Assembly: GCA_021399445.1 (NCBI GenBank)
Contig: JAJTUQ010000002.1
Span: 1,488,001 to 1,552,000, forward strand
DNA: 64,000 bases
Direction: 5' to 3'
Source: Xylogone sp. PMI_703
Lineage: Eukaryota; Ascomycota; Leotiomycetes
Shown here: positions 9,258 to 15,777 of the stretch, piece by piece
How positions within the stretch are numbered: position 1 is the first letter of the stretch
Layout: every line of letters begins with the position of its first letter
Translations under genes and position numbers: made by a program
The notes under the pieces: generated by a model
What the model saw: only the letters and a program-made list of their open reading frames with translations
Told to the model about the DNA's origin: nothing
Databases searched by the model: none

Positions 9258-10001
9258 AGATGAATAATAGTCATTCCAATTGAGCCAAATTAGAAACTTT
9301 AAGTTGGTAGAACCTTAATGAGACGTGACGTAAATCCCGGACTAGTCGGACACCAAGTCCCACTGAGCATTAAGTTTCACCACAAATTGAACAAAATCAC
9401 ATTTTAACTTTCTAATTGCAAAATATTGCAATAAGCGCATACTAGGAGGCGTGAGGCGTCACGCTTCAAGGATATGTAATCACTACACAAAATCTTCTGC
9501 GATAGAATCTTTTGCATAACTTAGGCTTACAGTTATATAATTTACACCCGTTGACGCAGGCGTTTCGCATCAGCTCAAGTATAATCAAGATCGTAGGTTA
9601 AAAGCCTACTAAGCGAGCGACTCTAGTTAATATCTTATTAAGGAAGAGATTCTGTAATACTGGATTTACTTCTAACTAATACACATTATTTTGCATTCAC
9701 CCTACTCACCTAAACTAAGAAGATGTGCCGTCGTTAACTGAAATGCGGACGAACCATCATAAGTGCCAAGTGCTAAGGTACCTCTATCCGCATTGGGGTA
9801 TATCCACATTGGGATATCTAGAGGTCGTGTCGGGATACTAAACCGCGTAATGACCTCCAGCTGTTATAAAATGTAAAACATCGTACTTCTATTTTCTTTG
9901 CCTCTTTTTCCCCATAGTTGGATATACCACAAATTTTGTACACTGTACGCACGCCCTTAATCGTCATCAGATTCTCCCCTTACAGCCGTGCATACTTGAC
10001 C
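9258..10001. other. Intergenic region, small hairpins
   Basis: No gene seen. Two small inverted repeats are visible: GCGTGA/TCACGC around 9449-9464, and a 46-bp stretch bounded by ACCTCTA (9780) and TAGAGGT (9825) with an internal repeated ATTGGG. The latter lies about 180 bp upstream of the next gene. Confidence 0.35.
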
Positions 10002-10424
10002 ATGTCTTCCTCATCCATTACAAAAAAGGCCGAACACAATGAAGCTTTTCGGAAAAGTATCTCTGATGGACTTAACACCGTCCTTAACAACGATGATTTT
10101 GCAAAGGCCGTAGCTGCACATCTTGCTAAACAGCTGCAACCTATCGTCAACCCGACGTTAGATATATCCTCGATTGAGGAGAGATTAGATGGTATTGCTA
10201 CTGATCTGAAGACTCTTAAAGAAAACGGGCCAGCTGCAGTTGGGATGGCGCTTTCTTCCCACGCAGCCAAGTTGGATCTCCTAGCTGCTGATGTTAAGAC
10301 CCTGAAAGACGAGGGTCCAGTTCCAGTTCGAACAGCACTTTCTTCTCAAGCAGCAAAATTTGACCTTTTAGCAATGGAACTTAAAGAGATCAAGGCCATT
10401 ATTGGGAATAATGCTGGGCCTTAA
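10002..10424 (+). CDS. Hypothetical coiled-coil protein with 29-residue tandem repeats
   Basis: The frame from the ATG at 10002 encodes 140 residues. No known family was recognised. Residues 62-90 and 91-119 are two copies of a 29-residue repeat; each has an LD..A.D.KTLK core and ends in ALSS.AAK. A partial third copy begins at 120. Leucine and isoleucine spacing suggests helices that may form a coiled coil. There is no signal peptide or membrane segment. The ATG at 10002 (context ACCATGT) is preferred over one 84 bp upstream, which adds an unconvincing lead. It stands alone between the catabolic genes and a gene-poor stretch and may be lineage-specific. Confidence 0.6.
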   Translation: MSSSSITKKAEHNEAFRKSISDGLNTVLNNDDFAKAVAAHLAKQLQPIVNPTLDISSIEERLDGIATDLKTLKENGPAAVGMALSSHAAKLDLLAADVKTLKDEGPVPVRTALSSQAAKFDLLAMELKEIKAIIGNNAGP

Positions 10425-11852
10425 GGCTGGCAGCACTGGACAAGCGTTTTAAGGATTTTGAGAAGGATCCAAGAATGGGAATACTGGGCAGTAATGTTAG
10501 TACGGCAAGTTCTAGTTAAAAGTGGATAAACGGAATTTGAAACAGTGTTTATTAATCAACCGGAGTCCCCCCAACTGGACATATATTACGTTACTGCTGT
10601 AAACAAACACTGTATGTGAATAGAATTTACTATTGTTACAAACTCCGATGGTGGTCTCAGAATAACATCCTCAGAAACGGTGCCAAAATGCCCTTTTTGA
10701 TCTACTACTGTGTACACCAAAGGATTCCAGGACAAGTGTCCCGGAAAGCGATGGTGGCGCTCATCCGAGAAAGGCAAGTGCCTATTAAGGTAATGATAGT
10801 TGAGGCCTGAAGACCGCCATATGGCTTACAATATCCCTGATGATATAATCAAATCATTGCTAACCTAGTCTCAGTTAAGTGGAAGACATTACTGGGCCAA
10901 ACGTCTCAGCAGGATTAAACTACTGTATAGGTGCTATGATAGAGTTACATAAGGTACATTACATGATAAGTAACATCTAACTGGAAGTGTAAACAGTATA
11001 CAGTAAAAGCTCATCACAGATAACTAGTGTTATCACCAAACTCACTGGGGTTGTACATTCAGCCATGGCTGTAAAGTTTAGGTTGCCTCTTTCATCCCGC
11101 TCCTTATTTTCTGATTACGCGAACAACTTTCCAGGCTTGGTCATGCCACAATAAAGCTGGACTTCATGCAGGCTCTTTTCTACCCGATTTGTGGGGTTTG
11201 CTATGCCACTAGACTTAGCTTAGATCTCCTCGATATTTGCTCTTCAGGAGGCCTTCTTCATCACCTATCTCGTATTTAAGGACACTATTTGAAGTTATGC
11301 TGCTAGTAACAAGGCAGCACACATACACATTGCATAGACAAGGGCCCCATCAATTGCTGATAACTCGAACTCAGTAGTCAACTGAAGTTCAACTTAAGTT
11401 GAACTCAACATTATTCCTATTTAGGTTTAGAATATGCTTAGTTACCATGATCAGCCAATAAAAATTCTATACTTAGCCGCTTGAGCTTACAGTTACAGCT
11501 TTTGCCCAATTGGGACTAGCTCAGGCATATTATAGTCACGTGATATGGTATTTTCATATTGATTAGTTACAAGTTATGCTAATTTATAAAGGAATTATGC
11601 AGATGAGTTATCGAGTAACTTTTGCACTTGGCTCCTCTCGAAATACTGCTGAGGCGTTTATGGTGATGAACATTGATCCAATATACCACAATTGGAGGAA
11701 ACTCGAAGATCAAATTGAATTAACTATCCTACGTGTATCCACAACTATTTTTATAAAGGAAAACATACCGTATGACGAGAGTTCGACTGATCTTCCGTAT
11801 CGAAATATTTGATGCTACGTTGGATAGACATTTCCCTCTAAGTGTATACAAC

Positions 11853-11898
11853 TAGACCGGCCAACGGTCCAGCCCAGAACGGGCTGTTGGCCAGTCTA
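11853..11898. repeat. Inverted repeat / potential hairpin
   Basis: TAGACCGGCCAAC at 11853-11865 pairs with GTTGGCCAGTCTA at 11886-11898 with one mismatch (G-U in RNA). AGCCC (11871-11875) and GGGCT (11881-11885) extend the stem after a bulge. The structure is unusually GC-rich for its surroundings. Confidence 0.6.
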
Positions 11899-13566
11899 TT
11901 CACTGGGATAACTCAAGAATACTTCTGGAAGCCCAGAAAACTACTACTTGCATAAGTAGTACATCATTATATCGTTGTTGTTAAAATAGAACCTTATATT
12001 ACCACATACCTTCCATTATGTAGTTTAGGCCTCATAAGAATAGCTAAATTTGTAGGTACTAATAAATATATGAAGGTTTGATAGATCAACAATATTTGAT
12101 TATTGGACGTTCTGACACAAGCGCAGCGTGCCACTTGGGTTAGCCGTGGCAACTCCCTCCTCGGGGCGAGCTTGCGGATAATGGATACATATCATAATGA
12201 TGCTCAAGATGATTTTCATTTTTTGATTTTTGATCTTCGTACCTCAGTATAAGCTGGAGGGGTAGTAGCCAATCGCACAATGTTATTCGCCTAGATAGAC
12301 CACTACCGCGTCATTGTAAGTTTGTCCCGTCATTATATCTCGTACCTCCAGCCTCACTATACAGGAGATTAGGAATCAGTCAAATTGTGGTATACGGCTG
12401 GTAAATTGATTGTGTTATTTCAGACTGTATAATTCAAGGTCCAGTCTAGGATACAAACAAACACGGGCAACCAAAAACGAGATCCAGCGAGGCTCTGAGG
12501 TCCTGCCTAACACGCTAATTACTCAAGTAATACAGCGTTTAATTGTCCAATCTCAGTCGAAGGAATACGTGGGGTCGACAAAGGTACATTACGCCCGGCT
12601 CATGGCTGAATTGTTGTCCCAATCCGCACGCATCTCACTGAGACGTGCCATACATCCCGAGATCCTCGCTGAATTATAGACAAGGAGTGCATTTGCTTGA
12701 TGAGTCGTTATGAAATCCTCAAACCCATAGCAAACCGTGATATGAGAGTCCGTAACACGAAGAACATAGCGGCCATAAATCCTCGTTCTTGTGGTTACGT
12801 AGTCTACAGCTCTGTACAAATATTAGGCGTGAATCAGAGGGATAAGAAAGCATATCGCATCCAGATATGAGTAACCCATAGAGTCTTGCACACTCTCTTG
12901 CCATACCCTCACAGTCTTCGGTTCTACCGCCTGAGCGCCAGGTAGGAGTTGTTCCTCAGACAATCTGTACAGAAGATCATGTTAACATGGGATTTTGGAC
13001 AGGGAAAAAGGCGGTAGCAAGGACCGCACATGCCAATCAATCGTGACAGAGAGGATTTACCTATGCGGGCATTGTTGACAGTTCCATATCCAAGCTCCCT
13101 TTTAGTCACGCACTGGAATAGGACAGATGAGCACGATAACGATAGCATTTGGATAAGTGGATGAAAAAGACTACTGATACCATAATTTTCCAATACCAAA
13201 TAATAGAAAGATAAAATCAATCAATCAATGTACAGTCTTGAACAGGCGAAATAATGGGAACTGGAAAAGTTTCATTATGATAAAAACTGAGATGAAGCGA
13301 TTATTTTATGCAGAAGAAGTATTACACTGGGAACGAGATCAACAGAAGAGAAATCACAGTTGATCTGATGATTTCTGGACCGATCTTGTTTTTCGGGGAA
13401 TTACTAGAGACAAGTAAGAGTTACTGCAAGGATACAAGCAGCTTATTGCGCTATAATCACACGTATTACGGCGGATGCATGAGCGGCTGCAGAGATGAAT
13501 GCAGGGGTATTTCTCACTCAGCTAGATCAACAACTATACGGTTTATATAGTTCAATGTGCCACCTC

Positions 13567-13607
13567 CATGTCGGAACCATATAGGTTCCGACATGTGGTT
13601 CCGACAT
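13567..13607. repeat. Perfect 12-bp inverted repeat plus direct copy
   Basis: CATGTCGGAACC (13567-13578) and GGTTCCGACATG (13584-13595) are perfect complements around a 5-base ATATA loop. A direct copy of GGTTCCGACAT follows at 13597-13607. It lies about 870 bp upstream of the ubiquitin-like gene and may be a transposon footprint or a binding site. Confidence 0.6.
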
Positions 13608-14340
13608 ACCTGGGAACTCAACCATGGAACGTAAAGATGAATGGGTAAAAAGAAGCGATATACTAGAAACAACCGATTATAGCCATATTTTGGGGGGTTA
13701 TTAGAGGCCATTCCCACAAGTGCTTACCTATTGGTTCTGACACTCCATTTCCTGAAATGTATGTCAGTAGAGAGTTCGGTGGTGAGATATGACGGCATCG
13801 GGTGGAGTGTAAATGCTTCGGTATATGCAAAAGCTAAAGATAAAAAAGGTAAAAACAGCCGTGCATTGCAAAGGATAAACCAGGTCCTATACCTAACTAG
13901 ATATAGTATCTTAATGTACTTTTACTCTTACATTTAGATTCTTATGAAATTTGCACTAACCATACCGGATTGTCTGAAAACCTCTCGAAAGCAGTGTAAC
14001 GAAATTGCTCTCTTAGCAGTCCATGAACTCTATCCCTGCCAGTTATTCTACCTAACCTTTACATACTATCCTAAGACCATTAATGAAAGGCACGGATTTA
14101 GCATCGGTTCCTTCCGAGGGAGAACCGGCATCATTCTACGGTACAATTTCCTTGCTGATCTTAACTTAGTAAAATTGTAGAAACGTCAATCTCTATAGCA
14201 CTTATCATGCTTATTACATGATAAAAGCAAACCTTATATGGTAAGATGATATTTACGGATCGTACAGATTCCGTTTATCTCTTCCGTAATATCCGTGACA
14301 TTTCGTATAGCCTTTTAGTCAACCTGAAGAGATCTTTAGG

Positions 14341-14349
14341 TATATAAAG
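14341..14349 (+). promoter_or_regulatory. TATA box of the ubiquitin-like gene
   Basis: TATATAAAG lies 123-131 bp before the ATG at 14472. That spacing gives a leader of roughly 100 nt, which fits a compact, strongly regulated fungal gene. Confidence 0.5.
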
Positions 14350-14471
14350 TGAAAGCTGAACCCAAACTCTGGTTCTTCAAGCTGGCGTCCTGACTTTGAA
14401 GACAACATAACCATCTCGGAATCTTCTTTACAGTCCTCTGGAACTTGTTTAAGATCACACGTATTGGAAAT

Positions 14472-14753
14472 ATGAAGCTCATCACTCTTCTTTCTCTTAT
14501 ATCAGGAGCCCTCTCACTACAGATACTTGTAGAGACGGACACACAAAATGGGGAGCAACCCATAGGTGTAGCATTGACAGTGGAGTCTTCTGATACTTGG
14601 GAAAATGTGAAATCCAAACTTCAAGAGAAGCTTGGAATTGCTCCGAACTGTCAAAGTCTCACATTCAACGGCAAAGGGCTTGAAGATGGCCGTACCATTT
14701 CCGATTATAATGTGGGAGATGGTTCTGTCATCATTTTAACCAAAACCTGTTAA
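14472..14753 (+). CDS. Secreted ubiquitin-like protein (candidate effector)
   Basis: An intronless gene for 93 residues. Residues 1-15 (MKLITLLSLISGALS) form a classic signal peptide. The rest is a ubiquitin fold: LQILVET, SSDTWENVKSKLQEKLGI and NGKGLEDGRTISDYNV align with ubiquitin QIFVKT, PSDTIENVKAK and AGKQLEDGRTLSDYN. Counterparts of Lys27, 29, 33 and 48 are kept, while those of Lys6, 11 and 63 are lost. The loop between strands 1 and 2 is about five residues longer. Ile44 of the recognition patch is Thr. The C-terminal LRLRGG is missing and the chain ends TKTC, so it cannot be conjugated by the E1 route. Two cysteines in the mature part could form a disulfide. The ATG at 14472 is chosen because only a TTG opens the frame upstream. 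Its location beside a gene-poor region, with a TATA box, resembles plant-pathogen effector genes. Function is inferred. Confidence 0.85.
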   Translation: MKLITLLSLISGALSLQILVETDTQNGEQPIGVALTVESSDTWENVKSKLQEKLGIAPNCQSLTFNGKGLEDGRTISDYNVGDGSVIILTKTC

Positions 14754-15777
14754 AGGTAAATTCCCCTTCCTTGTAACAAATAGCCTTTATCAAAGTGGTA
14801 AAAGTCTAATGCATGTAATAGTTACTGGAAACCCTTCCAAGACTGAAATCATTGACGCTCGACCTACATAAGGGAGTTGACGATGAGGAAGAGTTCTGAT
14901 TACTGGGCATTGAGAAGTCTTTGATTGACCAAAATGAGGGGCTGTCTTTATTGACAGATATACTTCCTTTCTATACATGACCTTTATGCTTGATTTCAAT
15001 TAAACTATATGAAAATAACGTTATCCAATAAAAAGACAGTCTTTACTCTTAGCATTACACGTTGCCTATTAAATGATATCCGTAATATAGTTTCAATGTG
15101 TCAAATACATTTAATACCTCTTAAAGCTGTAGTGCGTTTAAATAATTAAAGTTGAATTCATAAAACTGAAGTTAATGCCAGTTCCGGGGCTGGGACGATT
15201 CATCTACTTCTATTAGTCAATAAAAGAAAAAAAGCACGGGGAAAGGCAAAAAGTCTGGCTTGCTGTTTTTCATATCAACGATCTTAAACGATGGAGAGCC
15301 TGCGGTTACGCAGCATGAATTCTCGATATGCAGCAATGTAAAGCGTCGAGAACTGGCAGCGATGTCACCTATGTGGTTAACGTTACTACATCATCAATAT
15401 ATCTACACTTCACTGACGTCAGTATTTTGGCCAACATACCAGTACTCAAGATCCCGAAACTGTCGCGGCCTCATGAGATTTAAGCGCCAGCCTGCTTGTT
15501 GGTTCCCGACCAGATCTCGGCCAGAAGTATCCACGAGGCGCACACGTACAAAGAAAGATACACCCCACATGGAGATGCCGAATCGAAGCAAAATGTTCTG
15601 GATATATACATTAGGAACCTTTGTTTGAGGTCTTATCAAGCATTCAACGGCTCCTCTTTTACCAATTATACTCTATTTTACTATATCTTTTCAGAGTTAA
15701 CACATATATCAGGGCATCGCAGAGTCAGCATTCGAGGCTCTATAGTTCTTCTCAGACTTTTACATCTTTTTTATGCA
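14754..15777. other. Intergenic region, no gene seen
   Basis: Contains the 3' end of the ubiquitin-like gene and the promoter of the kinase gene. A frame open from 15496 runs into the kinase, but it starts at TTG and has no ATG before 15778. No repeats or RNA genes were recognised. Confidence 0.4.

What the first reader, a model, noticed from the sequence alone, without database searches (positions are those of the whole stretch)
14472..14753. Secreted ubiquitin-like protein without a conjugation tail
A 15-residue signal peptide is fused directly to a ubiquitin fold that keeps ubiquitin-specific strings (SDT.ENVK, GK.LEDGRT.SDYN). It has lost the C-terminal GlyGly, has Thr at Ile44 and carries an enlarged first loop and two Cys. 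Ubiquitin is normally cytosolic, so a secreted, non-conjugatable version looks like a decoy that could bind host E2, E3 or deubiquitinase surfaces using the retained Lys48 face. Secreted ubiquitin-type effectors are known in plant-parasitic nematodes; I do not know of a well-described fungal family of this form. The gene stands at the edge of an AT-rich gene-poor stretch, a typical effector setting.
Basis: partly seen in the sequence, partly recalled or inferred. Interest (0 to 1): 0.78.

Follow-up and report, generated by a model that had tools for sequence, protein, structure and literature searches.

The report
Fungal secreted ubiquitin with cysteine staple
A fungus carries two genes for a secreted, ubiquitin-shaped protein whose tail, normally used to tag other proteins, is gone and ends in a cysteine that probably locks it to the protein body, a design also seen in secreted ubiquitins of some bacteria.

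Summary
Window 14472-14753 (+) encodes 93 residues: signal peptide plus ubiquitin fold (Pfam E=1.5e-16; AlphaFold pLDDT 84.7), no GlyGly, Ile44 replaced by Thr, long first loop, two Cys. The genome, very probably Xylogone sp. PMI_703 (called a mycoparasite in print), holds a paralogue about 1.05 Mb away with the same plan; the coding sequence is conserved and the tested flanks are not, so gene, start and signal peptide look real. Both proteins have Cys at ubiquitin position 40 and Cys as last residue (73 or 75). In ubiquitin residues 40 and 72 are backbone partners, so a disulfide stapling the tail to strand 3 is likely. Secreted ubiquitins of Flavobacterium and near kin agree: of 64 distinct bacterial or viral rows, 11 have Cys40 and all 11 also have Cys at 73-76; none has one alone. 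The decoy reading is poorly supported: most of the Leu8-Ile44-His68-Val70 face and Arg42/Arg72 is changed, and Lys48 is Arg in the paralogue. The closest studied protein is Bacteroides fragilis BfUbb, a secreted antibacterial ubiquitin without GG and with a terminal Cys. Best reading: a stapled, non-conjugatable extracellular ubiquitin, perhaps used in antagonism. Function untested; transfer versus convergence undecided.

The parts
14472..14753 (+). coding sequence of the secreted ubiquitin-like protein, 93 aa plus stop, no intron
   Evidence: Pfam ubiquitin; coding conservation with the paralogue
14472..14516 (+). predicted signal peptide, residues 1-15, fused at the position of ubiquitin Met1
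   Evidence: sequence reading; crude rule passed, as by 13 of 145 window ORFs; 9 of 15 residues identical in the paralogue. No SignalP was available
14517..14750 (+). mature ubiquitin-fold domain, residues 16-93
14550..14564 (+). about five extra residues in the first loop (residues 27-31 in one pairwise alignment)
   Evidence: placement of the gap is approximate
14649..14651 (+). codon of Cys60 = ubiquitin position 40
14748..14750 (+). codon of Cys93 = last residue, ubiquitin position 73; GlyGly absent
14341..14346 (+). TATA-like hexamer about 130 bases before the ATG (weak, a consensus match only)

Best explanation
A secreted, single-domain ubiquitin relative that can no longer be conjugated. 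SHOWN by sequence: predicted signal peptide plus ubiquitin fold in two paralogues under protein-level constraint; no GlyGly; Cys at Ub position 40 and Cys as last residue in both; the same two-Cys arrangement in 11 bacterial secreted ubiquitins, and in no row examined one Cys without the other. INFERRED: after signal-peptide cleavage the two Cys oxidise in the ER and tie the shortened C-terminus to strand 3, giving a compact domain with no free tail for E1, E2 or deubiquitinases. INFERRED, less sure: it acts outside the cell as an antagonism protein against competing microbes or prey, in the manner of BfUbb, binding a target through its changed face and enlarged first loop.
For: Paralogue with the same plan. 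Cys40 with C-terminal Cys in 11 of 11 Cys40 rows, neither in the other 53 of 64; sister rows L009-1726 and L021-2328 differ by both or neither. NH of Arg72 bonds CO of Gln40 in native ubiquitin (PMC9230524, passage), so positions 40 and 72/73 are neighbours. Gln40 and Leu73 of ubiquitin are buried in a deubiquitinase complex (PMC4295869, passage), so a staple there should hinder such binding. BfUbb: signal sequence, secretion, no GG, C-terminal Cys, growth inhibition of other B. fragilis strains (PMC3352274, PMC5705921, passages). Oyster ubiquitin without GG reported bacteriostatic (PMC10892293, passages). Bacterial kin are patchy and partly tandem, as weapons often are (inference). Fungus called a mycoparasite. 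No N-glycosylation sequon and no ER-retention ending in either fungal protein.
Against: No activity, expression or secretome data. All 11 bacterial Cys40 rows come from Flavobacterium or near kin, so they are not independent. The Flavobacterium rows keep the Ile44 face that the fungal proteins have lost, so the two groups need not do the same thing. A C-terminal Cys could also pair between molecules. BfUbb's sequence was not obtained, so whether it has Cys40 is unknown here.
Confidence: 0.4

Rival explanations
1. One reading: an effector that enters a host or prey cell and acts as a decoy binding E2, E3 or deubiquitinase surfaces.
For: Ubiquitin fold, Lys48 kept in the window protein. Plant-parasitic nematodes secrete ubiquitin with a role in parasitism (PMC5705921, passage); such Globodera and Heterodera proteins appear among the hits.
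Against: The contact face and Arg42/Arg72 are largely changed, and Lys48 is not kept in the paralogue; the three nematode proteins printed with a full-length match keep GG, this one does not; no uptake signal known.
Confidence: 0.15
2. Redox-released trap: closed by the disulfide outside, opened in a reducing cytosol, where the C-terminal thiol bonds to the active-site Cys of E1 or E2.
For: BfUbb forms a covalent complex with human E1 seen under non-reducing conditions only, and inhibits ubiquitination in vitro (PMC3352274, passages).
Against: The fungal tail ends at 73 or 75 and lacks the face that E1 and other partners read (that these residues matter for E1 is recalled); a second Cys makes an internal bond more likely; entry into cells is not shown.
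Confidence: 0.1
3. A secreted domain without a role in antagonism: a ligand or cell-surface protein of the fungus itself, or a duplicated gene with a minor role.
For: No functional data; two diverged paralogues only; no conserved neighbour found.
Against: Protein-level constraint and the kept Cys pair argue for a specific, demanding function.
Confidence: 0.25
4. Origin rival (a separate question from function): the pair came from Flavobacteriaceae by horizontal transfer rather than by convergence from the fungus's own ubiquitin.
For: Same signal-peptide-to-Met1 fusion and same Cys pair; Xylogone sp. PMI_703 is among the top 10 genomes for prokaryote-derived genes in a survey of 829 fungal genomes (PMC11708051; 829 from the abstract; top 10 from passages). 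Fungal plus Flavobacterium rows 89/80 (not starred) with Cys columns kept.
Against: With Cys masked and tails cut the placement is unresolved: AU p 0.65 with Flavobacterium, 0.39 with own ubiquitin, 0.26 with eukaryotes. Identity to own ubiquitin (53 and 55%) is not below that to Flavobacterium rows (40-52 and 44-52%). Long branches.
Confidence: 0.35

Closest known systems
BfUbb (ubb) of Bacteroides fragilis
   Same: Ubiquitin domain right behind a signal sequence, secreted, GG lost, C-terminal Cys (PMC3352274, PMC5705921; passages)
   Different: Bacterial; much closer to ubiquitin (63% identity to human ubiquitin in the abstract) than the window protein is to its own ubiquitin (53%); tested activity; whether it has Cys40 was not seen here
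Secreted ubiquitins of Flavobacterium and near kin (L009, L021, L037-L039, L041, L042, L069, L076; described here)
   Same: Signal peptide, stand-alone domain, Cys40 with Cys at 73-76, no GG
   Different: Tandem in some genomes; Ile44 face kept; some have a second pair Cys19-Cys57; function unknown
Nematode secreted ubiquitin extension proteins (Globodera, Heterodera)
   Same: Signal peptide in front of ubiquitin (P0133, P0135, P0145)
   Different: Near-perfect ubiquitin with RLRGG and an added C-terminal peptide; no Cys in the domain
Canonical ubiquitin of the same genome (L003, L006, L008)
   Same: Fold, core residues, LEDGRT.SDYN segment
   Different: No signal peptide, GG tail where the C-terminus is read, no Cys, Ile44 face intact

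Membership tests
Pfam ubiquitin family PF00240 | score over the curated cut-off | tested here: met
   60.3 bits against 25.4; paralogue 76.2
Conjugatable ubiquitin (type I) | C-terminal GlyGly | tested here: not met
   protein ends ...TKTC
BfUbb-type secreted ubiquitin toxin | signal peptide directly before the ubiquitin domain | tested here: met
   by sequence and paralogue conservation; export itself not shown
BfUbb-type secreted ubiquitin toxin | no GG and a C-terminal Cys | tested here: met
   BfUbb feature from passages of PMC3352274
BfUbb-type secreted ubiquitin toxin | growth inhibition of related microbes | not testable with these tools
   needs the pure protein
BfUbb-type secreted ubiquitin toxin | common descent with BfUbb | not tested
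   BfUbb sequence not obtained
Stapled secreted ubiquitins (with the Flavobacterium rows) | Cys40 together with Cys at 73-76 | tested here: met
   both fungal proteins; 11 of 11 bacterial Cys40 rows
Stapled secreted ubiquitins (with the Flavobacterium rows) | one clade | tested here: inconclusive
   89/80 with Cys columns; unresolved without
Nematode ubiquitin extension effectors | GG followed by an extension peptide | tested here: not met
   protein ends at Ub position 73
Host-ubiquitin-machinery decoy | retained Ile44/Lys48 recognition face | tested here: not met
   Leu8, Ile44, His68, Val70, Arg42 and Arg72 changed in the window protein; Lys48 kept there but Arg in the paralogue

The most novel reading that the evidence does not exclude
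Disulfide-stapled secreted ubiquitins form a class of extracellular antagonism proteins that Flavobacteriaceae and a mycoparasitic fungus share by transfer or reached independently: the conjugation tail is replaced by a Cys that locks onto strand 3, turning the cell's tagging protein into a rugged secreted weapon or ligand.
Probability: 0.3. Interest if true: 0.82.

Novelty: new variant of a known kind. Interest (0 to 1): 0.6.

Why it matters
Ubiquitin is thought of as a cytosolic tag. A fungal, secreted, tail-less and probably disulfide-closed form, with the same Cys pair in bacterial secreted ubiquitins, suggests that ubiquitin has been turned into an extracellular protein more than once or passed between kingdoms, and that closing the tail is the recurring step. 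It gives a small protein with which to test whether the BfUbb kind of antagonism reaches beyond the gut, and a possible new element of mycoparasitism.

Tried and rejected
Upstream exon removing the signal peptide: not seen; the start and signal peptide are conserved in the paralogue while the 200 bases before the ATG are not; no transcript data were available. Further secreted copies in the genome: a PF00240 search gave 27 matches; the strongest besides the two secreted genes are polyubiquitin and the other ubiquitin loci, and three further loci that I opened (L065, L066, L068) read by eye as NEDD8-, Rad23- and Dsk2-like (labels recalled). The other weak matches were not opened. Mobile-element setting: 9400-15700 has two short diverged matches elsewhere in the genome besides itself. 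Phages: no match (window protein). Plasmids: one record, Ruminococcus albus (Flavobacterium protein as query). Viral contigs: one ubiquitin with GG (L035). Defence library: none. NCBIfam: only a Rad23 model far under its cut-off. Other fungal orthologues: none seen, but 120 of 1717 and 120 of 133 hits were listed, and the search needs shared words; of the 238 proteins handed, only P0001 and P0005 were printed with Cys at position 40. The Cys-Cys distance could not be measured on the model. BfUbb's own sequence was not obtained, and the later BfUbb target paper that I recall was not found in the library. That no fungal family of this form was met in print rests; that the bacterial Cys pair was not met in print rests (CC-licensed PMC text only). 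Two 'secreted ubiquitin' hits in fungi were secreted ubiquitin hydrolases.

Full report
THE THING ITSELF. Window 14472-14753 (+) is one open frame of 93 residues. Residues 16-93 are a ubiquitin domain: PF00240, 60.3 bits, E 1.5e-16. AlphaFold2 on a 20-row alignment gives mean pLDDT 84.7 with a ubiquitin-like order of strands and helices and low confidence in the first 10 residues (block mean 55); the 50 Foldseek rows shown from the PDB are ubiquitins, ubiquitin variants or ubiquitin fusions, many with a TM-score near 0.9 by target length. The last residue is Cys93; there is no GlyGly. Against this genome's own ubiquitin, the window protein has Asp at 8, Cys at 40, Ser at 42, Thr at 44, Lys at 48, Ile at 68, Thr at 70, Thr at 72 and Cys at 73, and about five extra residues in loop 1.

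THE GENE IS REAL. The genome is G000, 50.1 Mb in 25 contigs; the window is C12:1488001-1552000. The paralogue at C12:450290-450577 (-) is 96 residues. Its sequence is that of P0005, named 'ubiquitin [Xylogone sp. PMI_703]', on a contig of the same length, 8,210,761; hence the organism. The coding sequences share 181 of 266 aligned bases (z=12.7 against shuffles); the three 100-base flanks tested do not stand out (z 0.8, -0.4, -1.1); pN is 0.30 and pS 0.83, saturated. Constraint therefore lies on the protein, from Met1, signal peptide included. A crude signal-peptide rule alone is not strong: 13 of 145 window ORFs pass it. The two fungal proteins share MKLI, Cys40, Ser42, Asn46, Asp63-Gly64 and a final Cys, and little of this is in the own ubiquitin.

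THE CYS PAIR. Cys40 and a last-residue Cys (Ub 73 in the window protein, 75 in the paralogue) occur in both. In native ubiquitin the NH of Arg72 bonds to the CO of Gln40 (PMC9230524, passage), so these positions face each other across two strands. A scan of GTDB genomes with the two-row alignment gave 26 bacterial loci; by eye, many have a signal peptide in front of the ubiquitin domain. Searches found matches in 12 of 398 genomes of the genus, 7 of 397 of the family and 6 of 395 of the phylum of Flavobacterium sp. 270, and in 11 of 399 of the family of Pedobacter cryoconitis (G001 is counted in three of these, and some matches are long diverged proteins). Several are tandem: three copies in Flavobacterium sp. 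270, two in F. notoginsengisoli, four in P. cryoconitis, two in G1478. Of 64 distinct bacterial or viral rows (repeats and rows starting before the frame dropped), 11 have Cys40 and all 11 have Cys at 73-76; 53 have neither; Cys19 and Cys57 occur together in 5 and never singly. Sister rows L009-1726 and L021-2328 (99/93) differ by having both or neither of the first pair. L069 ends in Cys at position 73, as in the window. All 11 rows come from Flavobacterium or near kin, so the Fisher values (1.3e-12 over 64 rows, 7.4e-7 over 23 stand-alone rows) overstate independence. I conclude that a disulfide between position 40 and the C-terminus is likely in both groups; that 19 and 57 lie side by side in ubiquitin is recalled, not tested.

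WHAT IT DOES. The GG tail is gone, and if stapled the C-terminus cannot reach E1 or a deubiquitinase; Gln40 and Leu73 of ubiquitin are themselves buried in one deubiquitinase complex (PMC4295869, passage). The recognition face is lost in the window protein and partly in the paralogue (which keeps Leu8), while the 15 core positions tabulated stay hydrophobic, one being a gap in the paralogue's alignment. By contrast the 13 Flavobacterium-type rows tabulated keep Leu or Val at 8, Ile44, Val70 and Lys48 in all, and His68 in 12 of 13, so the two groups may differ in what they bind. A decoy of the ubiquitin system is a poor fit for the fungus. The nearest protein with a known activity is BfUbb of B. 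fragilis: signal sequence, secretion, no GG, C-terminal Cys, and growth inhibition of other B. fragilis strains (PMC3352274, PMC5705921; passages). Against my reading, its first authors also found inhibition of ubiquitination in vitro and a covalent complex with human E1 under non-reducing conditions, which would fit a trap. An oyster ubiquitin without GG is reported to be bacteriostatic (PMC10892293, passages). Xylogone sp. PMI_703 is called a mycoparasite and ranks among the ten genomes richest in prokaryote-derived genes of 829 fungal genomes surveyed (PMC11708051; abstract, passages). I therefore favour an extracellular antagonism protein, at about 0.4 for the whole reading; secretion alone I would put near 0.85 and the staple near 0.75.

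ORIGIN. With Cys columns and tails kept, the two fungal rows group (99/94) and sit beside Flavobacterium (89/80, not starred); holding them with the eukaryotic rows is disfavoured (AU p 0.008), with own ubiquitin alone not (p 0.23). With Cys masked and tails cut nothing is resolved: fungal with Flavobacterium p 0.65, with own ubiquitin p 0.39, with eukaryotes p 0.26, and the fungal pair itself has bootstrap 11 (SH-aLRT 90) and is one group in 40% of 200 bootstrap trees. Identity to own ubiquitin is 53 and 55%, to Flavobacterium rows 40-52 and 44-52%. Transfer and convergence both stand.

LIMITS. No RNA, proteome or assay data. Protein searches listed only the top 120 hits and need shared words. 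The literature searched is CC-licensed PMC text. An IBR-domain ORF about 1.1 kb downstream of the paralogue was not matched beside the window gene, whose nearest downstream ORF of size is a protein kinase, so no conserved partner is claimed.

Noticed in passing
L009 1726-3270, L021 2328-3270, L011 2222-3624, L076: Tandem arrays of two to four diverged secreted ubiquitins in Flavobacterium and Pedobacter genomes; in L009 and L021 they sit at a like place, beside the same neighbour genes.
   Followed up: partly
L038, L039, L041, L042, L009 2367-2663: A second Cys pair, positions 19 and 57, always together in 5 rows: probably a second disulfide.
   Followed up: partly
L018, L022, L024, L027, L030, L031: Gut Bacillota proteins with signal peptide, ubiquitin domain, further repeats and a hydrophobic C-terminus with basic end, as if ubiquitin were shown on the cell surface (by eye).
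   Followed up: no
P0153, P0223: Xanthomonadales and Brevundimonas proteins named IPTL-CTERM sorting domain proteins that hold a ubiquitin domain; P0223 has a signal-peptide-like start.
   Followed up: no
H1: NC_014824.1 388207-388440: A mobilizable plasmid of Ruminococcus albus 7 carries a ubiquitin family gene.
   Followed up: no
L067 3181-3669 (-): IBR-domain ORF (E3-ligase type) about 1.1 kb downstream of the paralogue, same strand.
   Followed up: partly
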